Positions 1-20,215 of a stretch of DNA of 64,000 nucleotides are shown piece after piece. The stretch covers positions 62,001-126,000 of the forward strand of contig JALHLU010000007.1 in assembly GCA_022844345.1 (NCBI GenBank), written 5' to 3'. The position numbers and the translations under genes are program-made. The notes beneath the pieces were generated by a model that ran no database searches, was not told where the DNA came from, and was given only the letters and a program-made list of their open reading frames with translations. The DNA is from Hyphomonadaceae bacterium. Lineage in GTDB: Bacteria > Pseudomonadota > Alphaproteobacteria > Caulobacterales > Hyphomonadaceae. Numbering within the stretch: position 1 is the first letter of the stretch; each line of letters opens with the position of its first letter.

Positions 1-1305
1 AGCGTGGAGTGGCGTTACGAGTTTCTGCCCGGTCACGATTTTCTGCTGCGCGTCGATTCCCTCGCCCTGTTGTTTGTCACACTGTCCGTATTCCTCTGGC
101 TGATCACCACGATTTACGCCATCGCCTATTTCGGCCGCGGGCCGAACCTCGCGCGCTTCTTCGGCTTCTTCAACCTTTGTGTTCTCGCAGCGACCGGCGT
201 GGCCATATCGGGAACAGCGATCACGTTTTTCCTGTTCTACGAATTGCTGACGCTGGCGACCTGGCCGCTCATCGTACATCGGGGCGACGAAAAATCGCTG
301 AGGGCGGGGCGGATATATCTGACGTATACCCTGGCGGGTAGCGCAGCGCTTCTGGCCGGCATTTTGTGGTTGAAGGCGCTGGTCGGCCCGATCGAATTCA
401 CTGTCCCGCCTGACCTTGGTGAAGTCTCGCCGATTGCTCTGACGTTGATCTTCATCCTCTGTGTTGGCGGGCTGGGGGTTAAGGCTGCGCTCGTGCCTTT
501 TCACGGCTGGCTGCCTGAAGCGATGGCCGCGCCGGCGCCGGTCAGCGCCTTGCTGCACGCCGTGGCGGTCGTGAAGGCCGGGGCGTTTGGCATTGTTCGC
601 ATCATCTATGATGTCTATGGCGTCGACACGGTCGCCGCGTTGAATCTCGGTTTGCCGCTTGCGGCGCTTGCCTCAGTCACCATCCTGTACGGGTCGCTGC
701 GCGCGCTCATGCAGAGCGACCTCAAGCGGCGTCTCGCCTATTCCACCGTCAGCCAGGTCAGCTACATCATACTTGGGGCGAGCCTGGTGGGGCCTTACGC
801 GGTGATCGGCGGTCTGGTGCACCTGGTGCACCAGGGCGTCATGAAGATCACGCTCTTCATGTGCGCCGGCGCATTGGCGAACCGCATGGGCATCAAGACG
901 ATTGCGGATATTAACGGTGCCGGGCGCTCGATGCCGGTCACCATGTTTGCTTTCACCATTGCCGCCCTTGGCATGATCGGTTTTCCACCACTGGCCGGCT
1001 TCATCTCGAAATGGTATTTGGGCACTGGCGGACTGCAATCGGGCGCGCCTTGGGTGGTTGCCGTATTGGCGGCCTCGTCGCTGCTCAACGCCGCGTATTT
1101 TTTGCCGCTGATTTTCCGAGCCTGGCTGCTCCCGAGGACAGCCGGGACCACTGTGCGGGAGTTTGCAAGCGCCGAAGATTGGATGCTCGTGCTTCCAGCC
1201 GCCGTTACGGCGGCATTGTGCGTGGCAGTAGGCGTCATGGCTGCTTGGGCGTTTAGCCCACTGGGCTGGGCCACGCGCATTGCCGAGACAGGATATCTGC
1301 AGTGA
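1..1305 (+). CDS. Complex I/Mrp-type proton-channel subunit (NuoM/MnhD-like), 5' end outside window
   Basis: Polytopic inner-membrane protein of the antiporter-like family shared by NuoL/M/N and Mrp A/D subunits. Numbering from the GTG at 4, it keeps the conserved membrane Glu (E80 in FFLFYELLTLATWPL), Lys (K160 in GLGVKAALVPFHGWLPEA), H167 and K191 in the APAPVSALLHAVAVVKAG block. The frame is open to base 1 and the protein starts inside what is normally the first helices, so the gene very likely continues upstream; 433 residues is short for the family (about 480-550). It overlaps the next gene by GTGA, implying translational coupling. Whether it carries H+, Na+ or works with a partner such as a DUF2309 protein cannot be told here. 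Confidence 0.85.
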   Translation, partial: SVEWRYEFLPGHDFLLRVDSLALLFVTLSVFLWLITTIYAIAYFGRGPNLARFFGFFNLCVLAATGVAISGTAITFFLFYELLTLATWPLIVHRGDEKSLRAGRIYLTYTLAGSAALLAGILWLKALVGPIEFTVPPDLGEVSPIALTLIFILCVGGLGVKAALVPFHGWLPEAMAAPAPVSALLHAVAVVKAGAFGIVRIIYDVYGVDTVAALNLGLPLAALASVTILYGSLRALMQSDLKRRLAYSTVSQVSYIILGASLVGPYAVIGGLVHLVHQGVMKITLFMCAGALANRMGIKTIADINGAGRSMPVTMFAFTIAALGMIGFPPLAGFISKWYLGTGGLQSGAPWVVAVLAASSLLNAAYFLPLIFRAWLLPRTAGTTVREFASAEDWMLVLPAAVTAALCVAVGVMAAWAFSPLGWATRIAETGYLQ

Positions 1306-3011
1306 CGTCGGAGAGCCTGCTGCTGCCAGCGGCGGTCGCTTGGCCGATGCTGCTTGCCCTGGCAAGCCTGACCCCGGGTTTCAGATCGTGCCTGCGAGCC
1401 GCTTTGCCGCTTGCGCCGCTGCCAGCTTTGGCGGCGGCGTTCCTGGCGCCGCGCGAGGTCTTGGTGAACGCCCCGGAGCTGCTGCTGGGCGGGGGCGGGC
1501 TTATGCTCACCGACGCCGGTGCGGTGTTTTTGGGTGCGGCCGCGGGGCTTTGGTTCTGCGCTGCAATCTATGCGGTGCGCTACATGCGCGACGACGCGCA
1601 CCCCGTCTCCTTCGCCCTGTTCTGGAACTTGGTCTTGGCGGGCAATCTCGGCGTCTTCATGGCCGCCGATCTGGCCAGTTTCTATGTCTTTTTCGCGCTG
1701 TTGTCGCTAATGGCGTACCCGCTCGTCATTCATGACCGCAAGCCTGCGTCCCTTCGCGCAGGCACGGTCTATATCGTTCTTGCCGTGATCGGTGAGACAG
1801 CGCTTCTGGTTGGGTTCATGCTGGCCGCCCACGTCGCTGACGGCGCAATCATGATCGAGGAGGTGCGCGCGGCGCTGACGGCATCGCCGACGCAACCGGC
1901 CACACTCTGGTTCCTGATCGTGGGATTTGGAATCAAAGCAGGTCTGATGCCGCTCCACGTGTGGCTGCCGGTCGCGCATCCGGCAGCCCCCACGCCTGCT
2001 TCGGCGGTCTTGTCTGGCGCCATCGTCAAAGCAGGCATCTTCGGACTGCTCATGTTTTTGCCGCTGGGCGCGACTTTCGAAATGGTGGGGTCGGTTCTCG
2101 CTTTCTTGGGCTTCGCAGGGCTTTTTGCGGCGGCACTGCTCGGTCTAGCTCAGACCAACGCCAAAACAGTGCTCGCCTATTCGACGGTAAGCCAGATGGG
2201 GCTAATCGTCGGCGTGATCGGCGTCGCGCAAGCGGCGGGAACACCGGCCGCCAGCGTCCTGGCGGCGGTTGCGCTCTATGCCCTGCACCACGGACTTGCT
2301 AAAGGCGCGCTCTTTCTCGGCGTGGGATTGGCTCAGCATACTACTGGCGCCTGGCGATGGCTTGTTGTGATGGTTTTGGCCGCAGTCGCGCTGTCGGTCG
2401 CCGGGTTGCCGCTGACGGCCGGCGCTATGGTCAAGGAGGTGATCAAGGAGCCGGCAGGCGCGCTGGGCGCGTCTTTGATCGGGGTGTCGTCACTGACCTC
2501 AGGTCTTATCTTGGCCCGCTATCTGTTTGTCCTGCCCGCGTCAGCAACGCAGACGCGGCCGCCCCTCATGCTGCTCGCTCCCACGGTCGCGTTAGCGGTG
2601 GCTGCGCTCTGCGCACCCTGGATGGTCCTGACCTGGAGCGCGGCGACGATCGATTATGAGCCTTCGGACCTGCTGTCGCAGGTCGTCGACGCTTGGCCGC
2701 TTGGGTTTGCGCTCATTTTGGCAGGCATAGTGGTTCTGCTTCGACTGAAATGCCCAACGCTCCCGGAGGGTGATCTGCTCTTCTTAATGCGGCAGGGGCT
2801 GCTTGGGGCGAACGCGACCTTGCGCCGGGTCGGTCGGTTTGCGCAGGCTATGGCAACCCCGGTGGCGCGAGAGCAGCGGACAAAGCAGCGCGGTGCGGCC
2901 TGGCTTAATTACCTCGACAGTCTCGAACGCGCCGCGCAGGGACAGGCCGCGATCGGCGGGCTGCTGTTGCTGGTCGCTGCGGCGTTAGGGGCCGCACTCT
3001 TATATGGCTGA
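1302..3011 (+). CDS. Second complex I/Mrp-type proton-channel subunit, lacks the TM5 glutamate
   Basis: 569-residue polytopic membrane protein related to its upstream neighbour and to NuoL/M and Mrp subunits. The GTG start overlaps the stop of the preceding gene. It keeps the TM7 Lys (K212 in FGIKAGLMPLHVWLP), H219 and K243 (SGAIVKAGIFG). The segment equivalent to FYELLTLATWPLIVH of its neighbour reads FFALLSLMAYPLVIH, so the conserved channel Glu is replaced by Ala132. The C-terminus ends in a hydrophobic helix with no long lateral helix as in NuoL. It is probably the partner of the first subunit in a two-component ion-translocating module; the transported ion is unknown. Confidence 0.85.
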   Translation: MTSESLLLPAAVAWPMLLALASLTPGFRSCLRAALPLAPLPALAAAFLAPREVLVNAPELLLGGGGLMLTDAGAVFLGAAAGLWFCAAIYAVRYMRDDAHPVSFALFWNLVLAGNLGVFMAADLASFYVFFALLSLMAYPLVIHDRKPASLRAGTVYIVLAVIGETALLVGFMLAAHVADGAIMIEEVRAALTASPTQPATLWFLIVGFGIKAGLMPLHVWLPVAHPAAPTPASAVLSGAIVKAGIFGLLMFLPLGATFEMVGSVLAFLGFAGLFAAALLGLAQTNAKTVLAYSTVSQMGLIVGVIGVAQAAGTPAASVLAAVALYALHHGLAKGALFLGVGLAQHTTGAWRWLVVMVLAAVALSVAGLPLTAGAMVKEVIKEPAGALGASLIGVSSLTSGLILARYLFVLPASATQTRPPLMLLAPTVALAVAALCAPWMVLTWSAATIDYEPSDLLSQVVDAWPLGFALILAGIVVLLRLKCPTLPEGDLLFLMRQGLLGANATLRRVGRFAQAMATPVAREQRTKQRGAAWLNYLDSLERAAQGQAAIGGLLLLVAAALGAALLYG

Positions 3012-3039: not shown

Positions 3040-3053
3040 TTGACAGTAATCAA
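3040..3053 (+). promoter_or_regulatory. FNR/FixK-type box upstream of usp
   Basis: TTGACAGTAATCAA fits the Crp/FNR-family consensus TTGAN-N4-NTCAA. It ends 70 nt before the usp ATG, a spacing suited to an activator. Four similar sites precede other genes of this locus. Confidence 0.7.
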
Positions 3054-3123
3054 TTCGAGGTCGCACGAAAGCGGTTAACAGGCGTAGTCACCGACGCCGC
3101 GCGGGTAGCCTGGAGAAATCGCC

Positions 3124-4062
3124 ATGCCGCAATTCAAGAACATATTGCTTGTCAGTGACGGCCTTACCGATGAGCGAGAGGCTTTTAAGCAAGCCGCAAG
3201 CCAGGCCAGAAACAACGGCGCATCCTTAAAAGTTGTGACTATTTGTCCGGCCTTCGACAAGGCGCTTTCGTCCTATCAGGTCAAGTTCGAGGCCCTGCTG
3301 GTTGAGCGCGCCCGCGAAAATGTAGCCGCCGCGTGCGCGGCGCTCAAACTCTCGGAAGGCGAGCTCGCTCTCTCCTTCGAAATAGAGGCCGGGGAGGCAC
3401 CGGCGACGCGCATCATCCGCCACGTTCTGCGCAACGGGCACGATCTGGTCATCAAGCAGGCGCCGGCCGCGGAGCTCAAAAGGGGCTTCCAGGCGATCGA
3501 CATGCAATTGCTACGCAAATGCCCGTGCCCAGTTTGGCTGAGCCGGCCGATCGCCGTCTCGCGCGGGGAGATGAAGGTGGCTGTGGCCGTCGATCCCGAA
3601 GGACCGCCCCCGGAGGGCGATGCCCTCGCGGTCCAATTGCTGCGCCTAGCGGGCGCACTGGCCGATGAATGTAATGGCAAGCTTGAAATCGTTTCGGCCT
3701 GGGACTTTCCGTTCGAGGGGTATCTGCGCAAAGGTTCGCGCATCAGGCTCGCCGAGGCGGAGCTGCAGGAGATCGTGCGCGAGACTGAAAAGCGCTGCCG
3801 CGATCAATTAAATGCCTTGATTAAGGCCGCGGCGATCGCCGGCGAGATGCGCCTTTCCCATCTGCGCGGCGTGGCCGGCGAGGCGATTCCAGATTTCGTC
3901 GAGGCGAATGGCATCGATATTCTCGTCATGGGCACTGTCGCGAGGACGGGGATCGCCGGCTTCTTCATGGGCAACACGGCCGAGAATGTACTGCGTAATC
4001 TGAGCTGCTCGTTGCTTGCGTTGAAACCGAATGGGTTTGTGTCGCCGGTCAAGGCTTGGTAG
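3124..4062 (+). CDS. Tandem universal stress protein (UspA family)
   Basis: Cytoplasmic protein of 312 residues with two Usp folds (about 1-145 and 155-300), the UspE-like layout. Domain 2 keeps an ATP-binding-type loop (GTVARTG then MGNTAENV from residue 270); domain 1 is more diverged. ATG 3124 has TGGAG 8 nt upstream. Usp proteins of this kind support survival during energy starvation and hypoxia. It sits 6 bp before the P-type ATPase, so the two are likely one operon, and an FNR-like box lies upstream. Confidence 0.9.
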   Translation: MPQFKNILLVSDGLTDEREAFKQAASQARNNGASLKVVTICPAFDKALSSYQVKFEALLVERARENVAAACAALKLSEGELALSFEIEAGEAPATRIIRHVLRNGHDLVIKQAPAAELKRGFQAIDMQLLRKCPCPVWLSRPIAVSRGEMKVAVAVDPEGPPPEGDALAVQLLRLAGALADECNGKLEIVSAWDFPFEGYLRKGSRIRLAEAELQEIVRETEKRCRDQLNALIKAAAIAGEMRLSHLRGVAGEAIPDFVEANGIDILVMGTVARTGIAGFFMGNTAENVLRNLSCSLLALKPNGFVSPVKAW

Positions 4063-4068
4063 CGCGCG

Positions 4069-6795
<2,727 letters not shown>

Positions 6796-6983
6796 GCGCC
6801 AAAGTGCCCCGACCGCTCGCCTCGTGCTTCATCGTGGTCTTGACGATGAGCGAGCCGCTGACGGGCGCGGTGATGAGCAAGAACACGGAACATGGCCGGC
6901 CGCCAGCGGTGCGAAGGCGAACGGCAGCGCCAGGACGAGCACAATGAGGCTTGATGTCATGTAGCGAATCCTCGGCGCACTCG

Positions 6984-7513
6984 ACCACAGACCAGATCGC
7001 CATAGCCAAGCCGCCGCTGGCAAAATATCTCGACGACTATGCGTGCGATGGCGCCCCGGTCAACGAGACCCTGCTGCGCGATCTCGCCGGCGGTAACTTC
7101 CTCACCGATCGGCGCAACGTTGTCCGCTCGCCGGAGCGGGTACAGGCAAGACCCATCTCGCCATCGCAATTCCCTGCGTCCGCGCTGGGGCTCGCCGCCG
7201 GTTGTTCGACACCGTCGACTTGGTCAACAAACGCGAGGCTGAGACCGGTGACGGGCGGCAGGGCTGCATGGCCGATTACCAGTCCCGCACGGACTTGATC
7301 ACCCTCGATGAACTCGGCTATCTGCCGTTCGCCCAGTCCGGCGGCCAGCTCCTGTTGCACCTGGTAAGCCGGCTCCACGAGCAGAGCTCAGTCATGATCA
7401 CCACCAACCTGGCGTTCGGGGAATGGCCCTCGGGGTTTGGCAACGCCAAGATGACCCCCGTGTTGCTCGACCGCCTGACGCATCACTGCGACATCCTTGA
7501 GACCGGCAATTAA
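6984..7513 (+). pseudogene. istB: Broken istB (IS21-family helper ATPase)
   Basis: Remnant of the AAA+ helper of an IS21-type transposon. One frame reads DQIAIAKPPLAKYLDDY and LLRDLAGG. After a frameshift near 7125 the adjacent frame reads the Walker A region [11 protein letters not shown], then [19 protein letters not shown] (Walker B) and [12 protein letters not shown] before an early stop at 7513. The N-terminal part of IstB, the final residues, istA and the terminal repeats are not seen. It lies between the ATPase and the PHA synthase, so it is an old insertion scar in that block. Confidence 0.8.
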
Positions 7514-7930
7514 AGCTGGCAGTCTAAGATCCGCTCCCCTTAGACCTCACCAGACAGCCAGCATCGGCTGAGACCGCCATGGCCCCGCAGCGTCGCAGCC
7601 GATGTCCTTCAACGCCGCCACAAGGCGGGGTCTCATTTGCAATCCTATCCAGGGTCCCGTTCCAAAGCCGTTTGACACCAGTTTCTTTGCCGCAATCGAG
7701 GTCGAAAAACAGCTTCGGCTTGTCTTCCGCCGAACCGTCAAGCCAGGCACGTGGCCATTGGGCAGTAGAGGCGGTTACCAAAAACTGAGCCTGTAAACGT
7801 GTCCTGACGCCCAGGACAGCGGATGACATCGCCCGCGGGCGAAGAAGCCCTTCTGCAACTGGAAGTGGTGCCGAAAAGTAGCGCTTCCAAGGCCCCGTGG
7901 CCAGCATCCGGCGGGAGCGTTGCGGTTACG
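7514..7930. other. Intergenic stretch without recognisable gene
   Basis: About 420 bp between the istB relic and the phaC promoter. Short open frames exist on both strands, but none has a recognisable motif or ribosome binding site. It probably includes insertion-sequence debris. Confidence 0.5.
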
Positions 7931-7944
7931 TTGACAACCATCAA
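7931..7944 (+). promoter_or_regulatory. FNR/FixK-type box upstream of phaC
   Basis: TTGACAACCATCAA, both half-sites intact, ending 58 nt before the phaC ATG at 8003. Because the site lies inside the longest possible reading frame, it also argues for the shorter phaC start. Confidence 0.7.
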
Positions 7945-8002
7945 TTGCGTGTCTGCCGTCAGGTGGCAGGATAACTTGAACTCGATGCCCACGGAGGACG
8001 GG

Positions 8003-9766
8003 ATGCCCTATCAGGGCGATACGGTGGCGAGATCCAGCGCAGGAGTTGCGGACGCAACGCCTGCGGCGGCGCTGCGAGATATGGACCGGCGCATACGTGG
8101 CCGTATTGCCCAGCTGATGGGTGGTCAATCGCCGTGGGCCGCGTTGCAGGCCTGGGAAGACTGGGCGTTTCATCTCGCTACGGCCCCCGGTCGACAGGTG
8201 GAGCTGGGCTGGCGCTGGGCGGAGGCAATGACGGCGCTCGGTCCGGGCGCAACGGTCGGCGAGAAGTCATTTCGCCCGAAGCCTGGCGATCGTCGATTTC
8301 GCAACGCGGTGTGGGAGACGTGGCCCTACAGTCTTTACGCGCAGACGCAGCTTGCGTTGGAGGAACAATGGGCTTGCGCGACGACGGCCGTGAGAGGCGT
8401 CGCCGAGCATCATGCGCGGCGTACGCGCTTCATGGGGGATTTCCTGCTCAACGCGGTCGCGCCGGTGAACTTCCCTTGGACCAACCCTGAAGTCGTCGCA
8501 AGGACGATAGCGACCGGCGGCATGAACTTCGCGGCGGGCGCGCAGTTGCTTGCTGAGGACGCCGCAAGACTGATGCAGGGGCAGACGCTCAAGGGCATGG
8601 AGGCGTGGGAGGTCGGCGAGACGATGGCGCTGAGCCCGGGCAAGGTCGTCTATCGGAACGAGCTGATGGAGTTGATCCAGTACGCGCCGACGACGGCGAG
8701 CGTGCATCGCCAGCCGGTGTTGATCGTTCCGGCCTGGATCATGAAATACTACATACTCGACCTCACGCCCGAAGATTCACTGGTGAAGTATCTCGTGGAT
8801 GCGGGGTACACCGTGTTCATAATCTCATGGAAGAATCCGGGCAAAGAACTCAGCGCGACGCCGTTCGACGCCTATCGCAGCGAGGGCGTCATGCGGGCGC
8901 TCGAGACGGTTCAGACGCTCGTGCCTGGCGAAAAGGTGCACGGCGTCGGCTATTGCCTGGGTGGAACGGCTCTCGCCATCGCTGCGGCAGCGATGGATCG
9001 TGACGATGACGACCGACTCGCGACGCTCACCCTGCTGGCCGCGCAGACCGACTTCGAAGAGGCGGGTGAACTTCTGATGTTCATCGATGAAAGCCAGCTC
9101 GCCTTGCTGGAAGACATGATGCATGTCTCTGGCTATCTGGACGCGCGCAGCATGTCGGGCGCCTTTTATGCGTTGCGCTCTCACGAGCTGCTGTTTGCCA
9201 AGCTGGTCGAGCGCTACCAGATGGGCGAACCGAGCGAGCCGAGACCGCTGGATGCCTGGCTCGCGGATCCTACCCGCATGCCGGCGCGCATGCATGGCGA
9301 ATATCTGCGCCAGCTCTTTCTGGAAAACCATCTGGCGCAGGGCGACTATGTTGTCGATGGACGCGCGCTTGCGATCAAGGACATAAAGACGACAACGTTC
9401 GCCCTTGGTGCTGACCGCGACCACATCGCACCCTGGCGTTCAGTGTACAAGATCGAACTTTATGGGTCTGCCGAGACCACATTCGTGCTGACGGGGGGCG
9501 GTCACAACTCCAGTGTCATCAGTCCACCAGGCAAGCGCGGCGCCTATCATCGCGTGAGCTCGCGTCCTGCCGGCGGCGCCTACGTCGATCCCGATGTCTG
9601 GCTGGAGCATGCGCCGCAGCAAGAGGGCTCCTGGTGGCCGACCTGGCTGGAGTGGCTGAAGGCGCGCTCATCGACAGCGTCCGTGAAAGCGCGAAAACCA
9701 GGCAATGCGCGCGCCGGTCCGGCCCCGCTCTGCGATGCACCCGGCGAGTACGTGTTCGAGCGTTAG
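8003..9766 (+). CDS. phaC: Class I poly(3-hydroxyalkanoate) synthase
   Basis: Polymerises 3-hydroxyacyl-CoA into PHA at the granule surface. The protein is 587 residues, normal for class I PhaC. The nucleophile box is GYCLGG with C318, and the triad is completed by D473 (GADRDHIAPW) and H501 (GGGHNSSV). The frame is open from 7823, but ATG 8003 has GGAGG 5 nt upstream and gives the normal length. Neighbours are an SDR, a phasin-like protein and an acyl-CoA synthetase, so this is a PHA/acyl-CoA island. An FNR-like box upstream suggests induction at low oxygen. Confidence 0.93.
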   Translation: MPYQGDTVARSSAGVADATPAAALRDMDRRIRGRIAQLMGGQSPWAALQAWEDWAFHLATAPGRQVELGWRWAEAMTALGPGATVGEKSFRPKPGDRRFRNAVWETWPYSLYAQTQLALEEQWACATTAVRGVAEHHARRTRFMGDFLLNAVAPVNFPWTNPEVVARTIATGGMNFAAGAQLLAEDAARLMQGQTLKGMEAWEVGETMALSPGKVVYRNELMELIQYAPTTASVHRQPVLIVPAWIMKYYILDLTPEDSLVKYLVDAGYTVFIISWKNPGKELSATPFDAYRSEGVMRALETVQTLVPGEKVHGVGYCLGGTALAIAAAAMDRDDDDRLATLTLLAAQTDFEEAGELLMFIDESQLALLEDMMHVSGYLDARSMSGAFYALRSHELLFAKLVERYQMGEPSEPRPLDAWLADPTRMPARMHGEYLRQLFLENHLAQGDYVVDGRALAIKDIKTTTFALGADRDHIAPWRSVYKIELYGSAETTFVLTGGGHNSSVISPPGKRGAYHRVSSRPAGGAYVDPDVWLEHAPQQEGSWWPTWLEWLKARSSTASVKARKPGNARAGPAPLCDAPGEYVFER

Positions 9767-9858
9767 CCAGCCAAACCGCTGGGGCAGGCTGACAAGGGGG
9801 GCTAAGCCAAGCCATCAGTGTGCTGGCGAATACTCAACCGAACGTGACCGGAAAGCGT

Positions 9859-10629
9859 TCAACGTGCGGTATAGCCGCCGTCGACAAGCAGCTCCGTGCC
9901 CGTCACGAATTTTGCTTCGTCCGAAGCGAGATAGACGACTGCCCAGGCGATGTCGTCAGGCTCTCCCATATTGCCCAACGGGTGCAGGGCTGCCGTAGCA
10001 GCCTTTGCCGCAGCCATGTCGTCGCCTACAGTCTTGAGATGGTTTTCCACCATGGGCGTCCAGATGAAGCCCGGATGCACAGAGTTTACGCGGATCCTGT
10101 CGGGCGCGTAGATCAGGGCGTCGGTCTTGGACATCAGTCTCACGGCGCCCTTTGAGGCGTGATAGGGCGGCACATCGGGCGCTCCGACGATGCCATAGAT
10201 CGAAGACAGGTTGATGATCGCGCCGCCCCCCGCCTTCTTCAAATGGGGGACAGCGTGTTTGACGCCGAAGAACACGCCCTTCACGTTGACCGCTTGCACC
10301 TCATCCCACTCTGCCTCGGTCAGTTCGTGCGTCGGCTTGTTGGCACCGGCAATGCCGGCATTATTCACCACCACGTCCAGCCGACCGAAATGCGTGGTCG
10401 CCTCGTCGGTCGCGCGCTTGACTTCGCCTTCGTGCGACACGTCGCAATGCCAATAGCGGGCGGAATACCCCTTTTCGCGAAGGCTGGCGGCGAGCGTCTC
10501 TCCCTGATGGTCATGTATGTCGAAAAGGGCGACGGCGGCGCCTTCCTCAGCCATCCGGATTGCGCAGGCCCGGCCAATGCCAACAGCAGCGCCGGTTATG
10601 ATCGAGACTTTGCCTTTGAGGCGGGTCAT
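9859..10629 (-). CDS. Short-chain dehydrogenase/reductase
   Basis: 256-residue classical SDR. It shows the Rossmann motif TGAAVGIG, NNAG, the catalytic Y and K in PPYHASKGAV, and a C-terminal LLVDGGYTAR typical of the 3-oxoacyl reductase / glucose-dehydrogenase-like group. ATG 10629 has AGGAG upstream; the frame extends 10 codons further without support. Its place beside phaC suggests a 3-hydroxyacyl/3-oxoacyl-CoA oxidoreductase (PhaB-like role), but the substrate is not fixed by sequence. Confidence 0.88.
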   Translation of the reverse strand: MTRLKGKVSIITGAAVGIGRACAIRMAEEGAAVALFDIHDHQGETLAASLREKGYSARYWHCDVSHEGEVKRATDEATTHFGRLDVVVNNAGIAGANKPTHELTEAEWDEVQAVNVKGVFFGVKHAVPHLKKAGGGAIINLSSIYGIVGAPDVPPYHASKGAVRLMSKTDALIYAPDRIRVNSVHPGFIWTPMVENHLKTVGDDMAAAKAATAALHPLGNMGEPDDIAWAVVYLASDEAKFVTGTELLVDGGYTAR

Positions 10630-10679
10630 GCTGGTCTCCTGCGTCAGTGCGTTCTTCACGCAAAAGCGGGGTACTGGCC

Positions 10680-10693
10680 TTGCGATTCATCAA
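10680..10693 (-). promoter_or_regulatory. Weak FNR-like box upstream of the SDR
   Basis: TTGCGATTCATCAA: one perfect ATCAA half-site and one degenerate half (TTGCG). It lies 51 nt upstream of the SDR start on the minus strand, the same arrangement as the stronger boxes in this locus. Confidence 0.4.
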
Positions 10694-10786
10694 GCGCCGG
10701 AAGCCAAGGATCATCGCGAGGGAAGGGTTGGACGCATCGGTCAGGCCGGCGGGTGTATCTGCGACACTGCCTCTTTAAGTGGCTGC

Positions 10787-11227
10787 CTAGTGTTCCCTCG
10801 CCAGCACAGTTGTTTCGGCGTGATCAACACGGTTCTGCTTGCGCGTGGCCACTTGTCGTTGAGATGGGTCGGCACCGCCGGCTTGCGCCGCGAAGCTCTT
10901 GGCCGGTGGATCGAGCTGCTCGCGGAGCGCTACCTGAGGCGCGAGCTGCGTGCGCCAGCCGGCGAGGAACTGGTCCTGCTGGTCCCGAACCGAAGTGCGC
11001 CAGAGATCGATGACCCGGCGCGCGCCCGTGAAGTAGGCTTCGGCGAGCTCAATCTGCATGAGGCCGAGTTGTGCGAGGGTGGGCGGGAACCCGAACGCGG
11101 CAGGGGGCGGATTTTGCAGCCCGGGTAGCCCCAAGGCCAACAGCGCTTGGGCAAACGGCGTATCTGGCGCCGGGGACGGCGGCGTTTCGGCTCCGATCGC
11201 GTTATTGGCTTTTGCTCCTGCAGGCAT
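10787..11227 (-). CDS. Small phasin-like protein
   Basis: 146-residue soluble protein. An Ala/Pro-rich N-terminus (about 1-45) precedes an amphipathic helical stretch (IELAEAYFTGARRVIDLWRT, then RDQQDQFLAGWRTQLA) like the coat helices of PHA-granule phasins. The start at 11227 is chosen for AGGAG 8-9 nt upstream; a longer frame to 11437 has no such support and would swallow the FNR-like box. Location between the PHA genes and the acyl-CoA synthetase supports a granule role, but similarity to a named phasin family is weak. Confidence 0.6.
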   Translation of the reverse strand: MPAGAKANNAIGAETPPSPAPDTPFAQALLALGLPGLQNPPPAAFGFPPTLAQLGLMQIELAEAYFTGARRVIDLWRTSVRDQQDQFLAGWRTQLAPQVALREQLDPPAKSFAAQAGGADPSQRQVATRKQNRVDHAETTVLAREH

Positions 11228-11294
11228 TTTCCTGTCTCCTTCATCCGGTTCACGTCGATTGGAGACAGGTTGAGGCCGCCGTCCGGCTCGCGTC

Positions 11295-11308
11295 TTGAGA
11301 TTCCTCAA
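11295..11308 (-). promoter_or_regulatory. FNR/FixK-type box upstream of the phasin-like gene
   Basis: TTGAGATTCCTCAA, a perfect palindrome in its 5-bp arms with a 4-bp spacer, 68 nt upstream of the ATG at 11227. Confidence 0.6.
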
Positions 11309-11429
11309 TCTGGCCCGATCACGATGTCGCACTCTCCAAAACGTGAGGAGCCCGTTGTTGTGAAGCATTCGCACGCGTCCAGGGCAATCTGTGCAACCGG
11401 CAACCTGCCCTGGCAGGGCAAACCTCATC

Positions 11430-14078
11430 TCACGCAAGGGACAACTCGACCCGTGTGAGGTCGGAGTGTTCCGGAACGGGGTGCAGGCGGCCGCCCAGCC
11501 GGCGCGCCATGCCGAGCGCGGCGGTGTTATCCGACAGGATGTCGCCCCAGACCCGCCGCGCGCCGCGCGCGCTTGCGTAGGTTAGCGCGTTGTCGAGGAG
11601 AAGGCGGCCTAGACCGCCAGCCTGTGCCTCGGAACGGACGACAACGAAGCATTCCGCGTTTAGGAAGTCCGGATCGAAGACCAGGCGCGCAAGGCCCGAA
11701 ACGTCTCCTACGCATTCTTCGGCGATCAGGACCATCTCCCGATCATAGTCTATTTGGCAGAGGCGCGCCGCGGTGGATTCATTCACCCGACCGACGGCCC
11801 CATGAAAACGCATCCGCAAATCATCTGCACGCGTTCGGGATGCGAAGTCCAGCAATCGACCTGCATCGTCTGCGCGGACAGGCCTGATCGTGATCTTGCG
11901 GTCACCAAGCGCGAAAGTTCGTACAAGCTCCTGCGGCCATGGGCGGATCGCGAGCCGGTTGGGCGTTTCAGCAGCAGGTCGGATGACGATGCGGGCGTCG
12001 AGAGCAATAGCCCCGTCGGCATCCGCGAGCAGGGGGTTTATGTCGAGTTCGGCGATTTCCGGCAGGTCGATGACTAGTTCCGAAAGAGCGATCAGAACGG
12101 CAGAAACCTTCTCGAGATCTGCAGGTTTGCGATCGCGATAGCCGGCCAGCAGCCGTGCGACGCGCGTTCGCCCGATCATGTCGCGGGCCAGCGCCGTGTT
12201 TAGCGGAGGCAGACCTATCGCCCGGTCTGCGATGATCTCGGTTGCAACGCCGCCATGGCCGAAAAGGATGCACGGTCCGAATATTGGATCGACAACCGTC
12301 CCCAGGATCAATTCCTGCGCATGCGGACGGCGCACCATCTGTTGCACCGTGAACCCGTCGATCGTCGCATCCGGTCGTTCACGTGCAACGCGCTCCAGCA
12401 TCTCGTCGGCGGCGCAACGCACGGCTGCCGGCGTGTCCAGATCCAGTTTTACGCCTCCAACATCGCTCTTGTGCGAGATCTGGCGGGACAGGATTTTCAG
12501 CGCCAGCGCCCCGCCAATCTGAGCCGCCGCTGCTTCTGCGTCCTCAGGTGACCCCACGATTCGGGTCTGCACCACGGGCACTCCATAGGCCGACAGTACT
12601 GCCTTTGCCTCCGGTTCGGTTAGGATGGAACGGCATTCAGCGAGAGCTCCATCGATGATTTCTCGCGCCTTGCCCGTGCGGCCTGCTTCGCGACCCGTCG
12701 AGGTTCGGGCCGGGGTCTCGTAAAGCGCCTGCTGGTTGCGCCCATACTCCCACAAACGGAGGAAGGCGCGGACAGCCTCGTCAGGAGTTTCGTAGTTCGC
12801 AACGCCGCCCGTCGATAGCCTGCGTCTCGGCTCCGCAGTGGTCGCTTCTCCCATCCAGCAACCAAGCATTGGACGTTCAGGATGCCGTGAACGGGCCTCA
12901 AGCGTGGACGTGACCGCATCCATGCTGTCGGCGACGCCGGTCGGACAATTCATCACAAGGATTGCATCATTTGCCGGGTCTGCGGCCAACGCCTCCAGCG
13001 CTACTGCATACCGCGCGCCGTCTGCATCTCCGATAATGTCGACCGGATTGCTGCGCGACCATGTCGCTGGAAGTGTCACGTCCAGCAAGTCACGCGTTGT
13101 GTCGGATATTTGAGCAAGACACCCACCGTGCCTTTCGAGCGCGTCTGCGGCTAGCACACCCAGGCCGCCGCCATTGGTGAGGATGGCCAGTCGATCGCCA
13201 TGCACGCGCAACCCCGAGTCGAGCGTCCCGGCTGCATCGAACAGATCCCTCAATGTATCGACGCGCAGCATGCCAGCTCGCCGGAAGGCCGCATCGAAAA
13301 CGGCGTCAGCGCCAGCGAGCGCCCCGGTATGCGAAGCTGCCGCCTTCGCTCCGGTTTCGCTGCGTCCAGCCTTCACGATAATCACAGGCTTGGCCCGGGC
13401 CGCAATACGGGATGCGGACATGAACTTGCGCGCCGAAGTTACACTTTCGGCGTAGATCAGGATGGCGCGGGTGGCCGCATCCATTGCAAGGAAGTCGAGG
13501 AGGTCGCCGAGATCGACATCCGCCATGTCTCCCAGAGAGACGAGATGGGAAAAGCCTATGTCGTGCCCGCACGCCCAGTCGATCATCGATGTTGCGATTG
13601 CGCCAGACTGTGACAGCAGCGCGAGGCCTCCCGCGCGCGGCGTCATGTGGGAGAAGCTCCCGTTGACCCCGTTCGCCGGCGAGAGGAAGCCCAGGCAGTT
13701 GGGACCGACTATCCGCATGAGGTGAGGGCGCGCGGCATCTAGCAAGGCCTGCTTTTCGACCAGGCTGAACCCGGCTGTAATCACCACCGCGGCCCGGCAC
13801 CCCTTCGCACCGAGCTCCGCCAACAAGCCGGGAACCGTATGCGGTGGCGTCGCGATAAAAGCGAGATCGGGGGTATGAGGAAGCTCCGCCACCGACGCAT
13901 GGCAAGCATGCCCTGACACCTCGGCAGCGCGCGGGTTCACGAACATGACGGGTCCGCCAAATCCGCCGCTCAACAGGTTACGGGCAACGACACGGCCGAC
14001 AGACCCCGGCTGAGCGCTCGCTCCGAGGAGCGCCAACGCACGGGGGGCGAAGAGGGCATCGAGGTTGCGGGTCGTCAT
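11430..14078 (-). CDS. ADP-forming acyl-CoA synthetase fused to GNAT acetyltransferase
   Basis: 882-residue multidomain enzyme. A CoA-binding Rossmann domain (about 1-130, starting LFAPRALALLGASAQPGSVG) is followed by the succinyl-CoA-ligase-like domain with the phospho-His motif ASHTGALAG, an ATP-grasp domain (about 480-700) and a GNAT domain (about 720-882). The first three form an NDP-forming acetate/acyl-CoA ligase that interconverts acyl-CoA + ADP + Pi with acid + ATP. The GNAT part resembles Pat/PatZ-type protein lysine acetyltransferases; in such fusions the ligase part is often a sensor only, but here the His is kept. ATP from acyl-CoA would suit hypoxia, matching the upstream FNR-like box. 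Confidence 0.88.
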   Translation of the reverse strand: MTTRNLDALFAPRALALLGASAQPGSVGRVVARNLLSGGFGGPVMFVNPRAAEVSGHACHASVAELPHTPDLAFIATPPHTVPGLLAELGAKGCRAAVVITAGFSLVEKQALLDAARPHLMRIVGPNCLGFLSPANGVNGSFSHMTPRAGGLALLSQSGAIATSMIDWACGHDIGFSHLVSLGDMADVDLGDLLDFLAMDAATRAILIYAESVTSARKFMSASRIAARAKPVIIVKAGRSETGAKAAASHTGALAGADAVFDAAFRRAGMLRVDTLRDLFDAAGTLDSGLRVHGDRLAILTNGGGLGVLAADALERHGGCLAQISDTTRDLLDVTLPATWSRSNPVDIIGDADGARYAVALEALAADPANDAILVMNCPTGVADSMDAVTSTLEARSRHPERPMLGCWMGEATTAEPRRRLSTGGVANYETPDEAVRAFLRLWEYGRNQQALYETPARTSTGREAGRTGKAREIIDGALAECRSILTEPEAKAVLSAYGVPVVQTRIVGSPEDAEAAAAQIGGALALKILSRQISHKSDVGGVKLDLDTPAAVRCAADEMLERVARERPDATIDGFTVQQMVRRPHAQELILGTVVDPIFGPCILFGHGGVATEIIADRAIGLPPLNTALARDMIGRTRVARLLAGYRDRKPADLEKVSAVLIALSELVIDLPEIAELDINPLLADADGAIALDARIVIRPAAETPNRLAIRPWPQELVRTFALGDRKITIRPVRADDAGRLLDFASRTRADDLRMRFHGAVGRVNESTAARLCQIDYDREMVLIAEECVGDVSGLARLVFDPDFLNAECFVVVRSEAQAGGLGRLLLDNALTYASARGARRVWGDILSDNTAALGMARRLGGRLHPVPEHSDLTRVELSLA

Positions 14079-14166
14079 ATGCCTCTACATGATCTGCGGC
14101 GATATGGCGCTCGTGGCCCACTGGTCGCCCAGCGTGCTCTGATAAAGGTAGCGCGCGCGCGCTTCC

Positions 14167-14180
14167 TTGACCGATGTCAA
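14167..14180 (-). promoter_or_regulatory. FNR/FixK-type box upstream of the acyl-CoA synthetase
   Basis: TTGACCGATGTCAA, perfect 5-bp inverted arms, 89 nt upstream of the ATG at 14078. Confidence 0.65.
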
Positions 14181-15522: not shown

Positions 15523-15612
15523 TCGGCCTTGTGCGGCAGGCGCTGTCAGTCTGGGTCGCGCAAGCGGCCCCGGCTTCGCATTCTGCCGCCGGGAAGCTCA
15601 TCGGAGCATCCC

Positions 15613-17568
15613 ATGACTGCCGAAACCCAAAGCATCCAGTTCATCCCGCTCAACCAGCTGATCCCGTCGCCGCGCAATGTGCGCCGCAAGGATCGCAAGG
15701 CTGATATCGACTCGCTGGCCGCGTCGATCAGCGCGCGTGGACTTCTGCAGAACCTCTGTGTGGTACCGTCCGCCGATTGCAAGTACGAGGTCGATGCTGG
15801 CGGCCGACGCCTTGCCGCCTTGAAGAAGCTGGCGCGTGACAAGACAATTCCGAAAGACTTCGCTGTTCCCTGCCATGTCGTCGGTCTGGAGGAGGGGCGC
15901 GAGGTCTCGCTGATCGAGAATGTCCATCGTGTCGCGATGGACGCGATGGATGAAGTGGACGCCTTTGCGGCGTTGATTGCCGAAGGCGCAACGCCTGACG
16001 ATGTGGCTCGGCGCTTCGGCGTCACGCGCCGGCATGTCGACCAGCGGCTGGTGCTGGCCGGCCTGTCGCCGAAGATCAAGGCGGCGTGGAAGCGCGGCGA
16101 CGTAAGCCTCGAAGCTGCACGCGCCTTCTGTCTCGTTGAAGATCATGCCCAGCAGGAAGCTGTGTTCCGCAGCCTTGGCCGTCCGGTGACCCATGCCGCA
16201 TCGGTTCGGGCGCGTTTGATGGAGGGCCGCATGCGCGCCTCCGACCGTGTTGCACGTTTCGTGGGACTGCATGCCTATGAGTTGGCGGGTGGCGCCGTGG
16301 TGCGCGACCTGTTCGATGCGGACGCCGTCTATGTCGGCGATCCTGCATTGATGACGCAGTTGGCTGAGCAGAAGCTCGACGGCGCGCGGGAGACCTGGCT
16401 GGAGCAAGGGTGGGGTTGGGTCGAGATCAATCTGGGCCAGAGAAGCGGGGAGGGGTACTCCGCCACTCGCCTCCAGCCGGACTGGCGGGAGTGCACCGAC
16501 GCTGAGGAAGCGGAGTTATCGCGCCTTCGCAGCGAACTGGAGGCGCTCGATGCCGCACTCGACGATGACAGCGTGGAGGACGATCCGCGCTGGGAGACGC
16601 GTGACGATCTCGCAGCGGCCATCGAAACCCTGCGGCAGTCGGCCCGTGTATGGGATGCAGACGTGATCGCTCATGCAGGTGTGGTCCTGTCGATCAATCA
16701 CGACGGAGACGTCCAGGCGACTCTGGGCGTTGTTCGTTCGTCCAACGAGAAGACAGTGAAGGCGATCCGCAAGAAGAAGGCGGCCCTCGCCGAGGCGGCC
16801 GAGGGGGAGTCTTCCGAGGAGGGCATGATCGATTCGGAAACCGATGCCGCTTCTGCGGATGAGGGATTCGAGAGCGAATGCCGCCTACCCAAGAGCGTCA
16901 TTCGCGACCTGTCGCAGGCGCGCACACGCGCTATCAGGCTTTTGCTGGCGCGGGATCGCGACACGGCGCTCGCTGTTGCGGTTGCGGCCATGCTCGTGCG
17001 GGCGGTGTTCCGGAGTGATCTGTCTGGAATTGGTGTCGCCGCGCATCCGGCCCATGTCGAGGATATCGACGCTTTCGCGGAGACGCGCAGCGCCATCCTG
17101 GCGCATGCGCCCGAGCACGAGGCGGACGTGCTTGGTTGGTGCCTGGCGCAGCCGTCCGGCACGTTGCTGGCGCTGTTGGCGGTGCTCGTGGCGGATTCCG
17201 TCGATCTGGTGCATGAGAAGGGCGCGCCCTCTGACCGTCGCCGCAACGCGTTGGCCGATACGCTGGCGGAAGCGCTCGATCTCGACATGCGGGAATTCTG
17301 GCAGGCCGATGCCGGGTACTGGACGCGCTTGCCGAAGGCGGAACTCCTCGCGGCGCTGGCCGAGTCGCCGACGCTGGTCGACAAGAGCCAGAAATCCCGC
17401 GACGCAACGATGGCTGCCCACGCCAAGCTGAAGAAGGACGAGTTAGCCGTGCGGGTTGATGAGGCGTTCGCCGGGGCCGGTTACCTGCCGGACCTCCTCG
17501 TGACGTCCGTGCCCCAGGGCGTCATTGAGCTGACCACGGCCGGCGCGGCGGCGATCGCCGCCGAATAG
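15613..17568 (+). CDS. ParB/RepB-like nuclease-domain protein of mobile elements
   Basis: 651-residue protein with an N-terminal ParB/Srx-like domain (IPLNQLIPSPRNVRRKDR, then a degenerate catalytic/CTP box LEEGREVSLIENVHR). A central HTH follows (ATPDDVARRFGVTRRHVDQRL), then a long C-terminal region with acidic stretches (about 290-460) and no recognised domain. The extended size and the neighbours SSB and ArdC are typical of ParB-like proteins on alphaproteobacterial plasmids and integrative elements, where they serve in maintenance or regulation rather than chromosome segregation. ATG 15613 has GGAG 6-8 nt upstream. No ParA is present. A terminator follows. Confidence 0.85.
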   Translation: MTAETQSIQFIPLNQLIPSPRNVRRKDRKADIDSLAASISARGLLQNLCVVPSADCKYEVDAGGRRLAALKKLARDKTIPKDFAVPCHVVGLEEGREVSLIENVHRVAMDAMDEVDAFAALIAEGATPDDVARRFGVTRRHVDQRLVLAGLSPKIKAAWKRGDVSLEAARAFCLVEDHAQQEAVFRSLGRPVTHAASVRARLMEGRMRASDRVARFVGLHAYELAGGAVVRDLFDADAVYVGDPALMTQLAEQKLDGARETWLEQGWGWVEINLGQRSGEGYSATRLQPDWRECTDAEEAELSRLRSELEALDAALDDDSVEDDPRWETRDDLAAAIETLRQSARVWDADVIAHAGVVLSINHDGDVQATLGVVRSSNEKTVKAIRKKKAALAEAAEGESSEEGMIDSETDAASADEGFESECRLPKSVIRDLSQARTRAIRLLLARDRDTALAVAVAAMLVRAVFRSDLSGIGVAAHPAHVEDIDAFAETRSAILAHAPEHEADVLGWCLAQPSGTLLALLAVLVADSVDLVHEKGAPSDRRRNALADTLAEALDLDMREFWQADAGYWTRLPKAELLAALAESPTLVDKSQKSRDATMAAHAKLKKDELAVRVDEAFAGAGYLPDLLVTSVPQGVIELTTAGAAAIAAE

Positions 17569-17587
17569 GCGGTATCATGCTGACATC

Positions 17588-17627
17588 AAAAGGGGCTGCC
17601 AGCAGAACTGGCGGCCCCTTTCTTTTG
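17588..17627 (+). terminator. Rho-independent terminator after the ParB-like gene
   Basis: Arms AAAAGGGGCTGCCAG and CTGGCGGCCCCTTT (one mismatch) with loop CAGAA, followed by a T-rich TCTTTTG. It lies 19 nt past the stop codon. Confidence 0.8.
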
Positions 17628-17700
17628 CAGACCCTGGGTTGGGGGGACGGGCCTGCAAACGCAGAATGTGCGTTGCTCCGCCAGACTGTGCAAGGTGAGA

Positions 17701-19026
17701 TCAATAGAAGTTGTAGGAGTCCTTTGGCAGTTCACCCTCCGGGTCCTGAAGCTCATCCGCTTCAGGAAAGAGCGCAGCCTTGGCGAGAGCAGATTCGATC
17801 CCCGCTTCGTCAAGGGCGGCTTGCGAGAGCCTTAGTCGCTCGCGCACCCATTGGTTCGTTCGGTCGAGGTGAGGTGATTTCTGCTCGGCGCCGGCATGGG
17901 CCAGCCATTCCGTGAGGCGCGCGATCTCCTGCTGGTGATCAGACAGCTCCTTCAGGAAGGCCAGGCGACGGGTCTCCCGCTCTGCGCGACGCCGGGCCGT
18001 CTCGCGCCGGCGTTGCATGTGGGCGTACTGGCGTTGCCACTCTTCGTGACTTTCGCGTCTTTCCTTGACCGCAGCGAGATGAGCACGCAGCCCCAGCGCG
18101 ATGTCGTCGAGCATTCGCTCGACCTTCTGCGTTTTCCCGTCGGACCAGCGCCTGCGAAGACCATCGCCGCCGCTCCTGTCGATCTCGACGACGAGGTGGC
18201 CCAGAAAGATGATGTCCCACTCGGGATAAGGCCGCGTGTAGGAACCCAGATCCACGAGATCGCTGAGCGATTTTTGGCTCCAGCGCCGCTGGAAGCGCTT
18301 TCGTTCCTTCTCCTCCTCGTTCAGTTCTTCCTGCGTCGGGATGTGCTTCTGGCGCCGCGTCTTCTCAACGAGGGTCAGTAAGACGGTGTCAGTCCCGATC
18401 CCCGCTCGCATGGAGGCGCCAGCCGGTTCGAACGCGATGCCATCCTTCTCCAGGCGCCTGGCGAGGCCATCGAGAATGAACATAGCCCGTTCCGCCAATC
18501 CCGCCGAGATGATGACCCCGTGCATGCCTTCATCGCACGCGCGAACGGCGCCATCCTTGGCTGGCCTGCTCTTGCGCAGGGTCAACGCCGTCAGCTTGAT
18601 CGATCGATGCAGATCGACCACCGGGAAGGGCGCTAGCGGCTCCGGTTCAGGGCGATCCTCCTTCGTCTGCATATCTTCGATCCGTGCTTCGGCCAGGACT
18701 TTCGCGGCAGCCTCCGGGAGCCGTGAGGTCGTCGCGACGATCTCAATGGTCGGGTTCTCGGTCTCAGCCCGGGCAAGCGATTGGCGCTCGGCCTTATGCC
18801 CAGCCTGGAGGCGAGCCCAGTAGCCGCGCGGAGGCGACGGAATTCCATGGCGCGCGCACGTCTTGGCCAATCCCACATCGGAAATGCCAAACTCGACGGC
18901 CACGTCGCGCATCGGTCGTGACCAGACAAGTTCGTAGAGGTCCTTTCGCGTGATGGTGCGGAATGAGGGCAAGCTTGGTCTACCTTCTTGGCAGTGGTCC
19001 GTGATTGAGAGCCTGGCGCCGACCAT
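17701..19026 (-). CDS. Unrecognised protein with N-terminal HTH-like segment
   Basis: About 440 residues, opposite in strand to the flanking mobile genes. Near the N-terminus is ITRKDLYELVWSRPMRDVAV followed by a segment with FGISDVGLAKTCARHGIP and PPRGYWARLQAGHKAE. This looks like a helix-turn-helix that I have seen in hypothetical proteins of mobile elements but cannot name. The C-terminal third is a charged Arg/Glu/Gln-rich helix (about 330-400), probably coiled coil. The start is uncertain: ATG 19026 lacks a ribosome binding site, while TTG 18972 has AAGAAGG about 10 nt upstream and begins just before the conserved part. Function unknown; DNA binding is inferred. Confidence 0.65.
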   Translation of the reverse strand: MVGARLSITDHCQEGRPSLPSFRTITRKDLYELVWSRPMRDVAVEFGISDVGLAKTCARHGIPSPPRGYWARLQAGHKAERQSLARAETENPTIEIVATTSRLPEAAAKVLAEARIEDMQTKEDRPEPEPLAPFPVVDLHRSIKLTALTLRKSRPAKDGAVRACDEGMHGVIISAGLAERAMFILDGLARRLEKDGIAFEPAGASMRAGIGTDTVLLTLVEKTRRQKHIPTQEELNEEEKERKRFQRRWSQKSLSDLVDLGSYTRPYPEWDIIFLGHLVVEIDRSGGDGLRRRWSDGKTQKVERMLDDIALGLRAHLAAVKERRESHEEWQRQYAHMQRRRETARRRAERETRRLAFLKELSDHQQEIARLTEWLAHAGAEQKSPHLDRTNQWVRERLRLSQAALDEAGIESALAKAALFPEADELQDPEGELPKDSYNFY

Positions 19027-19116
19027 GGTCAAGCGCATCCAGGATCGCTGGCCGATCCGCCGCCGCCCGCCAAGGCCACGTTTGCTTGTTACGCCCATCA
19101 AGCGTCCGGCGCATGC

Positions 19117-19178
19117 CCGCGCAAGGGGCCGAGGCTTCGGACCTTCGGTCCTGCAGGCCGCACCAACCCCTTGCGCGG
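19117..19178. repeat. Long-range 12-bp inverted repeat upstream of the SSB-like gene
   Basis: CCGCGCAAGGGG (19117-19128) and CCCCTTGCGCGG (19167-19178) are perfect inverted arms. The 38-nt spacer itself holds smaller hairpins (GACCTTCGGTC). It could fold as a cruciform or leader RNA structure, or be a single-strand origin-like element. Confidence 0.55.
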
Positions 19179-19241
19179 TCACCGCTGCGCTTGCTTTCCG
19201 GCCGCTCCTGAAGGGCGTCGCAAACGCGACCCCGGCGGGGC

Positions 19242-19257
19242 TGATCCCGCGGGATCA
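19242..19257. promoter_or_regulatory. 16-bp perfect palindrome before the SSB-like gene
   Basis: TGATCCCGCGGGATCA, with no spacer, ends 14 nt before the ATG at 19272, next to the ribosome binding site GGAAGAG. It is a good operator candidate for a dimeric regulator; the regulator is unknown. Confidence 0.5.
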
Positions 19258-19271
19258 CAAGGAAGAGCATC

Positions 19272-19688: not shown

Positions 19689-19695
19689 TGCGCCA

Positions 19696-19719: not shown

Positions 19720-19757
19720 CCCATCCCGTCATTCACCTCATTTCGCAGGAAACACTC

Positions 19758-20132: not shown

Positions 20133-20152
20133 ACTCTGACCGCAGGTCAGCG

Positions 20153-20173: not shown

Positions 20174-20215
20174 TTGTCGCTCTTCCCATCATTTCAAACT
20201 CTCAAGGAGGTCGTC

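What the first reader, a model, noticed from the sequence alone, without database searches (positions are those of the whole stretch)
3040..14180. Four FNR/FixK-type boxes (plus one weak) define one low-oxygen locus
TTGACAGTAATCAA (3040), TTGACAACCATCAA (7931), TTGAGATTCCTCAA (11295) and TTGACCGATGTCAA (14167) all fit TTGAN-N4-NTCAA, and TTGCGATTCATCAA (10680) is a weaker copy. They lie 51-89 nt upstream of the starts of usp, phaC, the SDR, the phasin-like gene and the acyl-CoA synthetase. TTGAN6TCAA is expected about once per 65 kb by chance, and less in GC-rich DNA. Usp genes are known FNR/Anr targets in other proteobacteria. Putting PHA synthesis, ADP-forming acyl-CoA synthesis and ion pumping under the same switch is an unusual combination.
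Basis: partly seen in the sequence, partly recalled or inferred. Interest (0 to 1): 0.75.

Follow-up and report, generated by a model that had tools for sequence, protein, structure and literature searches.

The report
FixK-box-controlled low-oxygen survival genes
A bacterium carries a block of stress, storage-polymer and ion-pump genes whose start regions share the DNA tag used by oxygen-responsive regulators, so the block very probably switches on when oxygen runs low; similar blocks are already known in Burkholderia and rhizobia.

Summary
The boxes are real. The window holds four exact TTGAN6TCAA sites (0.45 expected), all intergenic, 59-89 nt before usp, phaC, a phasin-like gene and an ADP-forming acyl-CoA synthetase. 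The fifth (SDR) is a weak one-mismatch site. The genome has 54 exact sites against 19 for the reversed pattern. Seven lie in 45 kb of this contig, in two groups 31 kb apart, with two FixK-like regulators among them. In 80 related loci only the 6-nt spacer is enriched (93 sites against 2-22 for ten other spacers), and 11 of 80 have the box within 300 nt of the synthetase. Paralogous promoters keep the boxes while flanks diverge. Box-dense clusters of similar genes occur in the same genus, Sinorhizobium pSymA, Mesorhizobium and Castellaniella. The control is best read as FixK-type: both island regulators match FixK2 best and lack FNR cysteines, and the genome has a FixL-like kinase and a cco/hemN/fixK cluster. 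The 'unusual combination' claim fails: it recurs, and Herbaspirillum Fnr proteins directly control phaC, phasin and usp genes. A well-supported new member of a known kind (lxa locus, FixK regulons). No expression data exist.

The parts
3040..3053 (+). exact FixK/FNR box TTGACAGTAATCAA, 71 nt before usp
3124..4062 (+). universal stress protein (tandem Usp, UspE-like)
   Evidence: Pfam Usp 1.6e-32; NCBIfam UspE below its cut-off
4069..6795 (+). P-type cation ATPase (type IIA-like), 6 nt after usp, so probably in one operon with it
   Evidence: NCBIfam Ca-ATPase models below their cut-offs
7202..7513 (+). IS21 IstB remnant between the ATPase and phaC
7931..7944 (+). exact box TTGACAACCATCAA, 59 nt before phaC
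8003..9766 (+). class I-like PHA synthase (phaC), one of three matches in the genome
   Evidence: NCBIfam class I model below its cut-off
9859..10629 (-). SDR oxidoreductase, substrate undetermined; belongs to an ortholog group (64-73% identity) found in 7 of the 40 related genomes searched
10680..10693 (-). weak one-mismatch box 51 nt before the SDR
   Evidence: exact boxes at -60 and -127 before two orthologs
11295..11308 (-). exact box TTGAGATTCCTCAA, 68 nt before the phasin-like gene
11430..14078 (-). ADP-forming acyl-CoA synthetase with C-terminal GNAT acetyltransferase domain, substrate undetermined
14167..14180 (-). exact box TTGACCGATGTCAA, 89 nt before the synthetase
   Evidence: box within 300 nt upstream of 11 of 80 homologs

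Best explanation
The window's first 14 kb are the right-hand box group of a low-oxygen region on contig C7; a left-hand group (usp genes and a CRP/FNR gene) lies at C7:30.7-36.2 kb, 31 kb away. The boxed genes carry a FixK/FNR site centred 58-96 nt before the start codon, consistent with class II activator promoters. When oxygen falls, a FixK-type activator (the FixK beside ccoNOP/hemN on C5 and/or the two FixK-like proteins of this region, probably downstream of a FixL-like kinase) binds the boxes and turns on usp plus ion ATPase, PHA synthase and phasin-like gene, and the acyl-CoA synthetase. The likely benefit is survival when respiration stops: reducing power goes into PHA, acyl-CoA is handled through an ATP-linked step, ion balance is held, and Usp proteins protect the cell. 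Shown: boxes, positions, conservation, candidate regulators. Inferred: binding, oxygen response, physiological role.
For: Four exact intergenic boxes; 54 exact sites in the genome against 19 for the reversed pattern, strict TTGAYN4RTCAA 25 against 4; 43 of the 53 located sites are outside called genes. Canonical targets carry boxes in this genome: ccoN (box centre 84.5 nt before it) and a MarR gene beside fixK, in a cluster with hemN and ccoOP/fixG. The regulators at C7:34513-35175 and C7:50618-51286 have the ExxSR recognition helix and match FixK2 (4i2o) best of all solved structures, E 4.8e-23 and 1.2e-32. FixL-like PAS hybrid kinase at C5:121116. Spacer-6-only enrichment, 93 against 2-22, and 11 of 80 synthetase upstream regions against 2 hits in all for ten other spacers. 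A -10-like A/T signal 29-35 nt after the box centre in 130 pooled promoters. Paralogous C7/C18 promoters keep 25 of 28 box positions against 121 of 238 flanking ones.
Against: No transcription or binding data. The SDR box is imperfect. 69 of 80 synthetase homologs lack an exact box within 300 nt, among them the three closest (L067, L068, L069; 4 of the 80 have less than 300 nt upstream); 37 of 80 loci have no box at all in the stretch held. None of the 29 other PhaC loci held has an exact box within about 1.5 kb. The box before the C7:34.5-kb regulator is 337 nt from its start, and the C7:50.6-kb regulator and the Mrp antiporter genes have no exact box nearby. The K-box of the hFixL-FxkR-FixK route is absent near fixK. 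One CRP-family protein with a CxxCx5C motif exists on C10, so direct oxygen sensing is not excluded. The genome-wide scan P for the four window boxes alone is only 0.02.
Confidence: 0.8

Rival explanations
1. The boxes bind a different CRP/FNR-family factor with a similar site (NnrR/DNR-like, or the region's own regulators responding to another signal such as NO or redox), so this is not an oxygen regulon as such.
For: Six proteins with the ExxSR helix and no FNR cysteine motif are in the genome (C5, C8, two on C7, C13, C18), two of them in this region. NnrR and FixK sites may overlap (PMC5596199, passages). The signal of the region's regulators is unknown.
Against: The same box precedes ccoN in this genome; both regional regulators match FixK2 better than DNR; comparable loci in S. 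meliloti and B. cenocepacia are low-oxygen controlled (passages).
Confidence: 0.22
2. The cluster is a chance run of an A/T-rich palindrome in intergenic DNA, with no common control.
For: Genome-wide scan P of only 0.02 for the four window boxes; intergenic DNA tends to be more A/T-rich than genes (general knowledge).
Against: Spacers other than 6 are not enriched in the same DNA; boxes are kept between diverged paralogs, occur upstream of 11 of 80 synthetase homologs and are dense in several same-genus and rhizobial loci.
Confidence: 0.03
3. The boxes were active in a donor but are relics here: the region was acquired, is interrupted by insertion-sequence remnants and may be unexpressed.
For: IstB remnant at 7202-7513, IS66 genes at C7:36-39 kb, partial transposase at C7:49.7 kb, patchy distribution in the genus (7 of 15 genomes with a strong synthetase match), two diverged copies of one block.
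Against: The genes behind the window's boxes have long open frames; box cores stay intact between copies while flanks diverge.
Confidence: 0.1

Closest known systems
[quoted passage not shown]
   Same: About 50 clustered genes including six usp genes, acetoacetyl-CoA reductase (phbB) and phosphofructokinase, up-regulated at low oxygen and tied to anoxic persistence; an Anr/FixK-type regulator is suspected (PMC6127331 and PMC9104464, passages). Here: usp genes, SDR, phaC; a PfkB protein next to the synthetase paralog on C10.
   Different: The main text of PMC6127331 has no occurrence of 'acyl-CoA', 'ATPase' or 'phasin', so synthetase, pump and phasin are not seen as shared. Homology to BCAM genes was not tested. 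The primary paper (Sass 2013, PMC3721108) is not held.
FixK-motif-dense 120-kb region of Sinorhizobium meliloti pSymA
   Same: Dense FixK-like motif, over-represented Crp/Fnr regulators without the FNR cysteines, expression linked to the PHB cycle (PMC5596199, passages); FixK controls SMa1147 and SMa1158 among others (PMC3596328, passages). The pSymA stretch 605735-644410 holds a synthetase homolog with a box 69 nt upstream, Usp, P-type ATPase and CRP homologs and 10 boxes.
   Different: The published region includes denitrification and nitrogen-fixation genes; no match to this phaC in my stretch. I did not verify that my stretch lies inside the published region; the record held has no gene annotation there.
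Mesorhizobium sp. B2-1-1 plasmid pB2-1-1, 147593-186268
   Same: Synthetase/GNAT, APH/ATP-binding protein, Usp genes, phasin, P-type ATPases, 11 boxes.
   Different: Carries FixJ and a PAS sensor kinase inside the cluster, plus arginine deiminase and hemA genes.
Fnr regulon of Herbaspirillum seropedicae
   Same: Fnr1 directly regulates phaC1, an operon with phaC2, and phbA2; Fnr3 directly activates a phasin gene; both co-activate uspA_1 and uspA_2 (PMC5934665, passages).
   Different: Described as genome-wide promoter groups; in the passages seen they are not described as one island.

Membership tests
FNR/FixK regulon | TTGA-N6-TCAA palindrome upstream of target starts | tested here: met
FNR/FixK regulon | a CRP/FNR regulator with the ExxSR recognition helix in the genome | tested here: met
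   six such proteins among 14 HTH_Crp_2 matches, two of them in this region; that ExxSR reads TTGA is recalled
FNR/FixK regulon | box centred near -41.5 with a -10 element (class II) | tested here: inconclusive
   pooled A/T signal at +29.5 to +34.5 from the centre in 130 promoters; no mapped transcription starts
FNR/FixK regulon | target genes respond to oxygen through the regulator | not testable with these tools
   no expression data
FNR (Fe-S sensor) as the direct regulator | N-terminal cysteine cluster in a regulator that has the matching helix | tested here: not met
   by regular expression on the frames of the 14 matches: the one CxxCx5C CRP protein (C10:63 kb) lacks ExxSR; the six ExxSR proteins lack the cysteine motif
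hFixL-FxkR-FixK cascade | FixL-like PAS hybrid kinase next to a response regulator that is not FixJ-like | tested here: met
   PAS-HisKA-HATPase-receiver protein C5:121116-122666, PAS matches FixL structures at 1.9e-26; C5:122676-123449 is receiver plus Trans_reg_C. Haem binding itself untested
hFixL-FxkR-FixK cascade | K-box GTTACA-N4-GTTACA upstream of fixK | tested here: not met
   two hits with one mismatch in the genome, none on C5; reversed control 3
lxa-type low-oxygen island | clustered usp genes with PHA-linked and stress or transport genes under low-oxygen control | tested here: inconclusive
   gene kinds met; oxygen response untested; homology to BCAM0275-0323 not tested

The most novel reading that the evidence does not exclude
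The region is a portable, partly self-regulating low-oxygen module: it carries its own FixK-type activators, one of them behind a box and present in two copies, so after transfer it can wire itself into, and amplify, a host FixK/FNR signal. The lxa locus, the pSymA FixK region and this one would then be forms of one modular, horizontally shared class across Proteobacteria, recognisable by spacer-6 boxes around an ADP-forming acyl-CoA synthetase/GNAT gene.
Probability: 0.33. Interest if true: 0.62.

Novelty: new member of a known kind. Interest (0 to 1): 0.42.

Why it matters
It offers a sequence-only way to recognise low-oxygen survival regions, shows PHA synthesis, acyl-CoA metabolism, ion pumping and Usp proteins under FixK-type boxes in distant Proteobacteria, and names regulators and promoters that can be tested directly in an alphaproteobacterium.

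Tried and rejected
Rejected: chance clustering (spacer controls; paralog conservation). Rejected: 'the combination is unusual'. Not found: the K-box of the hFixL-FxkR route. Weakened: the phaC box as a conserved feature of close relatives. None of the 29 other PhaC loci held has an exact box, and same-genus synthetase loci show no match to this phaC; but of 8 PhaC genes within synthetase loci of distant taxa, 3 have a box within 400 nt upstream of the tblastn match, against 0 of 8 for each of seven other spacers. Weakened: the SDR box. 6 of 7 loci with close SDR orthologs have an exact box within about 1.5 kb, against 0 of the 22 loci with more distant SDRs (one search tested 6 of 7 against the first 7 distant loci), but only 2 of the 7 have one directly upstream. 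CRP relatives: 14 of 30 loci held contain a box, against 0-5 of 30 for seven other spacers; this count includes the window's own copy and mixes paralogs. Phasin homologs: none in the loci held. The window usp (3124) and second Mrp subunit gave no hit in the other loci at E 1e-4, so conservation of the usp(3124) box is untested. Same-family locus L175 (32% synthetase) has no box; same-genus L169 (4.8 kb) none, L170 one, L168 two, L166 three. First phasin coordinates used were out of frame and were corrected. Gene calls come from my own codon-usage script and can miss genes; differ by one (10 or 11 of 53 own sites inside called genes) because the score threshold differed. Related loci are not phylogenetically independent, so the P values are rough.
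Full report
Observation. The four boxes exist at the stated places and are the only exact TTGAN6TCAA sites in the window (0.45 expected). All are outside called genes. Box-to-start distances are 71, 59, 68 and 89 nt for usp, phaC, the phasin-like gene and the synthetase, and 51 nt for the weak SDR site. The weak site has a core mismatch, and 19 one-mismatch sites occur in the window.

Genome context. The window is C7:62001-126000 of a 4.19-Mb genome of 18 contigs. A same-genus contig (G010:C255) is identical to a record titled Hyphomonadaceae bacterium, so the host is probably of that family. The genome has 54 exact sites (reversed-pattern control 19) and 25 strict TTGAYN4RTCAA sites (control 4). 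I located 53 of 54; 43 of 53 are outside called genes. Seven lie in C7:30722-76180: expected 0.59, genome-wide scan P 0.00085; for the four window boxes alone the scan P is 0.02. The seven form two groups, three at 30.7-34.2 kb (one of these inside a usp gene) and four at 65.0-76.2 kb, with none between.

Anatomy. The left group holds DabA and DUF6671, three Usp genes, an APH/AAA kinase and a CRP/FNR gene, followed by IS66 genes. Between the groups lie LysR, Bax1-I, DAGK, Usp, MgtC, a second CRP/FNR gene, TerB, a second APH/AAA kinase, patatin, a transporter and an Mrp-type antiporter set that runs into window 1-3011. In the window follow usp and a P-type ATPase 6 nt later, an IstB remnant, phaC, SDR, phasin-like gene and synthetase/GNAT. 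The left block usp - APH/AAA - usp - box - CRP - usp has a second copy on C18 at 79-90% protein identity, and the synthetase has a paralog on C10 at 72%. Beyond the synthetase come ParB and DUF3363 proteins, and later a DnaB gene, which hints at a mobile element next to chromosomal DNA.

Is the box functional? Four tests agree. (a) In 80 named loci around synthetase homologs (1.55 Mb) spacer 6 gives 93 sites and ten other spacers 2-22; 11 of 80 loci have a spacer-6 site within 300 nt upstream of the synthetase, against 2 hits for the ten other spacers together (4 of the 80 have less than 300 nt there). (b) 102 of 114 sites in the named and plasmid loci and 30 of 32 in the eight same-genus and same-order loci used are outside called genes, whereas 52 of 76 sites with spacers 4, 5, 7, 8 and 9 in the same loci are inside genes. 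(c) Between the C7 and C18 copies box positions match 25 of 28 and flanking ones 121 of 238 (Fisher P 5e-5); in the usp promoter the two changes fall on the degenerate positions 5 and 10. (d) 130 promoters aligned on the box show A/T preference 29.5-34.5 nt downstream of its centre, where the -10 element of a class II promoter would sit. In this genome the box also precedes ccoN, a classical FixK target.

Regulator. Fourteen HTH_Crp_2 matches exist, 11 above the family cut-off. Six have the ExxSR helix and none of these has an FNR cysteine motif; one other protein has CSACPVRGTC but no ExxSR. The proteins at C7:34513 and C7:50618 and the C5 FixK all match FixK2 4i2o best (E 4.8e-23, 1.2e-32, 3.1e-21). 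The first of these has a box 337 nt upstream, kept in the C18 copy; the second has none nearby. A FixL-like PAS hybrid kinase lies at C5:121116 with an OmpR-type response regulator beside it, as in the hFixL-FxkR-FixK route (PMC7888657, passages), but the K-box of that route is not found near fixK.

Relatives. 7 of 15 same-genus genomes, own included, have a strong synthetase match. Three of their loci are box-dense, 9, 7 and 6 boxes per 20 kb in L167, L173 and L174; others are not: 3 in 15 kb (L166), 2 in 20 kb (L168), 1 in 12 kb (L170), 0 in 4.8 kb (L169). S. meliloti pSymA and a Mesorhizobium plasmid carry 10 and 11 boxes in 38.7 kb. Of 80 named loci 43 have at least one box and 21 at least two; Usp matches are in 12 of those 21 and in 2 of the other 59. 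PhaC, Usp and P-type ATPase are all matched in 4 of 80 (L107, L110, L114, L137), which are three genomes of Noviherbaspirillum and Castellaniella. Against: 69 of 80 lack an exact box at the synthetase and 37 of 80 have no box in the stretch held.

Known work. The lxa locus of B. cenocepacia (PMC6127331, PMC9104464, PMC3759415: passages), the FixK-motif-dense pSymA region linked to the PHB cycle (PMC5596199: passages), FixK control of SMa1147 and SMa1158 (PMC3596328: passages), Fnr control of phaC, phasin and usp in Herbaspirillum (PMC5934665: passages) and a box TTGAc/t-N4-g/aTCAA with uspA at -41.5 in Sphingopyxis (PMC7713065: passages) show that the kind is known. In the listings of searches I saw no paper that unites these regions as one class; that is a statement about those searches only.

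Verdict. Real, conserved in part, very probably FixK-controlled; ordinary in kind, useful as a clear member and as a hint of a wider modular class.

Noticed in passing
G000 C7:30722-36159 and C18:288-5733 (L176): Two diverged copies (79-90% protein identity) of a usp - APH/AAA kinase - usp - box - CRP/FNR - usp block in one genome.
   Followed up: partly
G000 C10:332-4329 (L020): Second synthetase copy (72% identical) beside a PfkB protein, with boxes on both sides; G003 (L166) has the same spacing of boxes and genes, though its DNA is not identical.
   Followed up: partly
G000 C5:121116-134780 (L179, L022): FixL-like hybrid kinase, OmpR-type regulator, cbb3 oxidase operon, hemN, boxed MarR gene and FixK within 14 kb.
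   Followed up: yes
G000 C7:26478-30124 (L016): DabA inorganic-carbon transporter homolog followed by a DUF6671 protein, just upstream of the first box.
   Followed up: no
G000 C13:32030-37624 (L019): Three strict boxes near a ribonucleotide reductase, a MoaA-like protein, an MFS transporter and a CRP-family regulator: perhaps an anaerobic respiration cluster.
   Followed up: partly
L225-L254 (CRP relatives in related genomes): 14 of 30 short loci around CRP/FNR relatives contain an exact box, far more than other spacers give.
   Followed up: no
window 15529-24382: ParB-like protein and a DUF3363 protein next to the boxed genes, suggesting an integrated mobile element.
   Followed up: partly
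window 39310-43497: 1395-aa open reading frame without any Pfam match; long ORFs overlap it on the other strand, so it may not be a gene.
   Followed up: no
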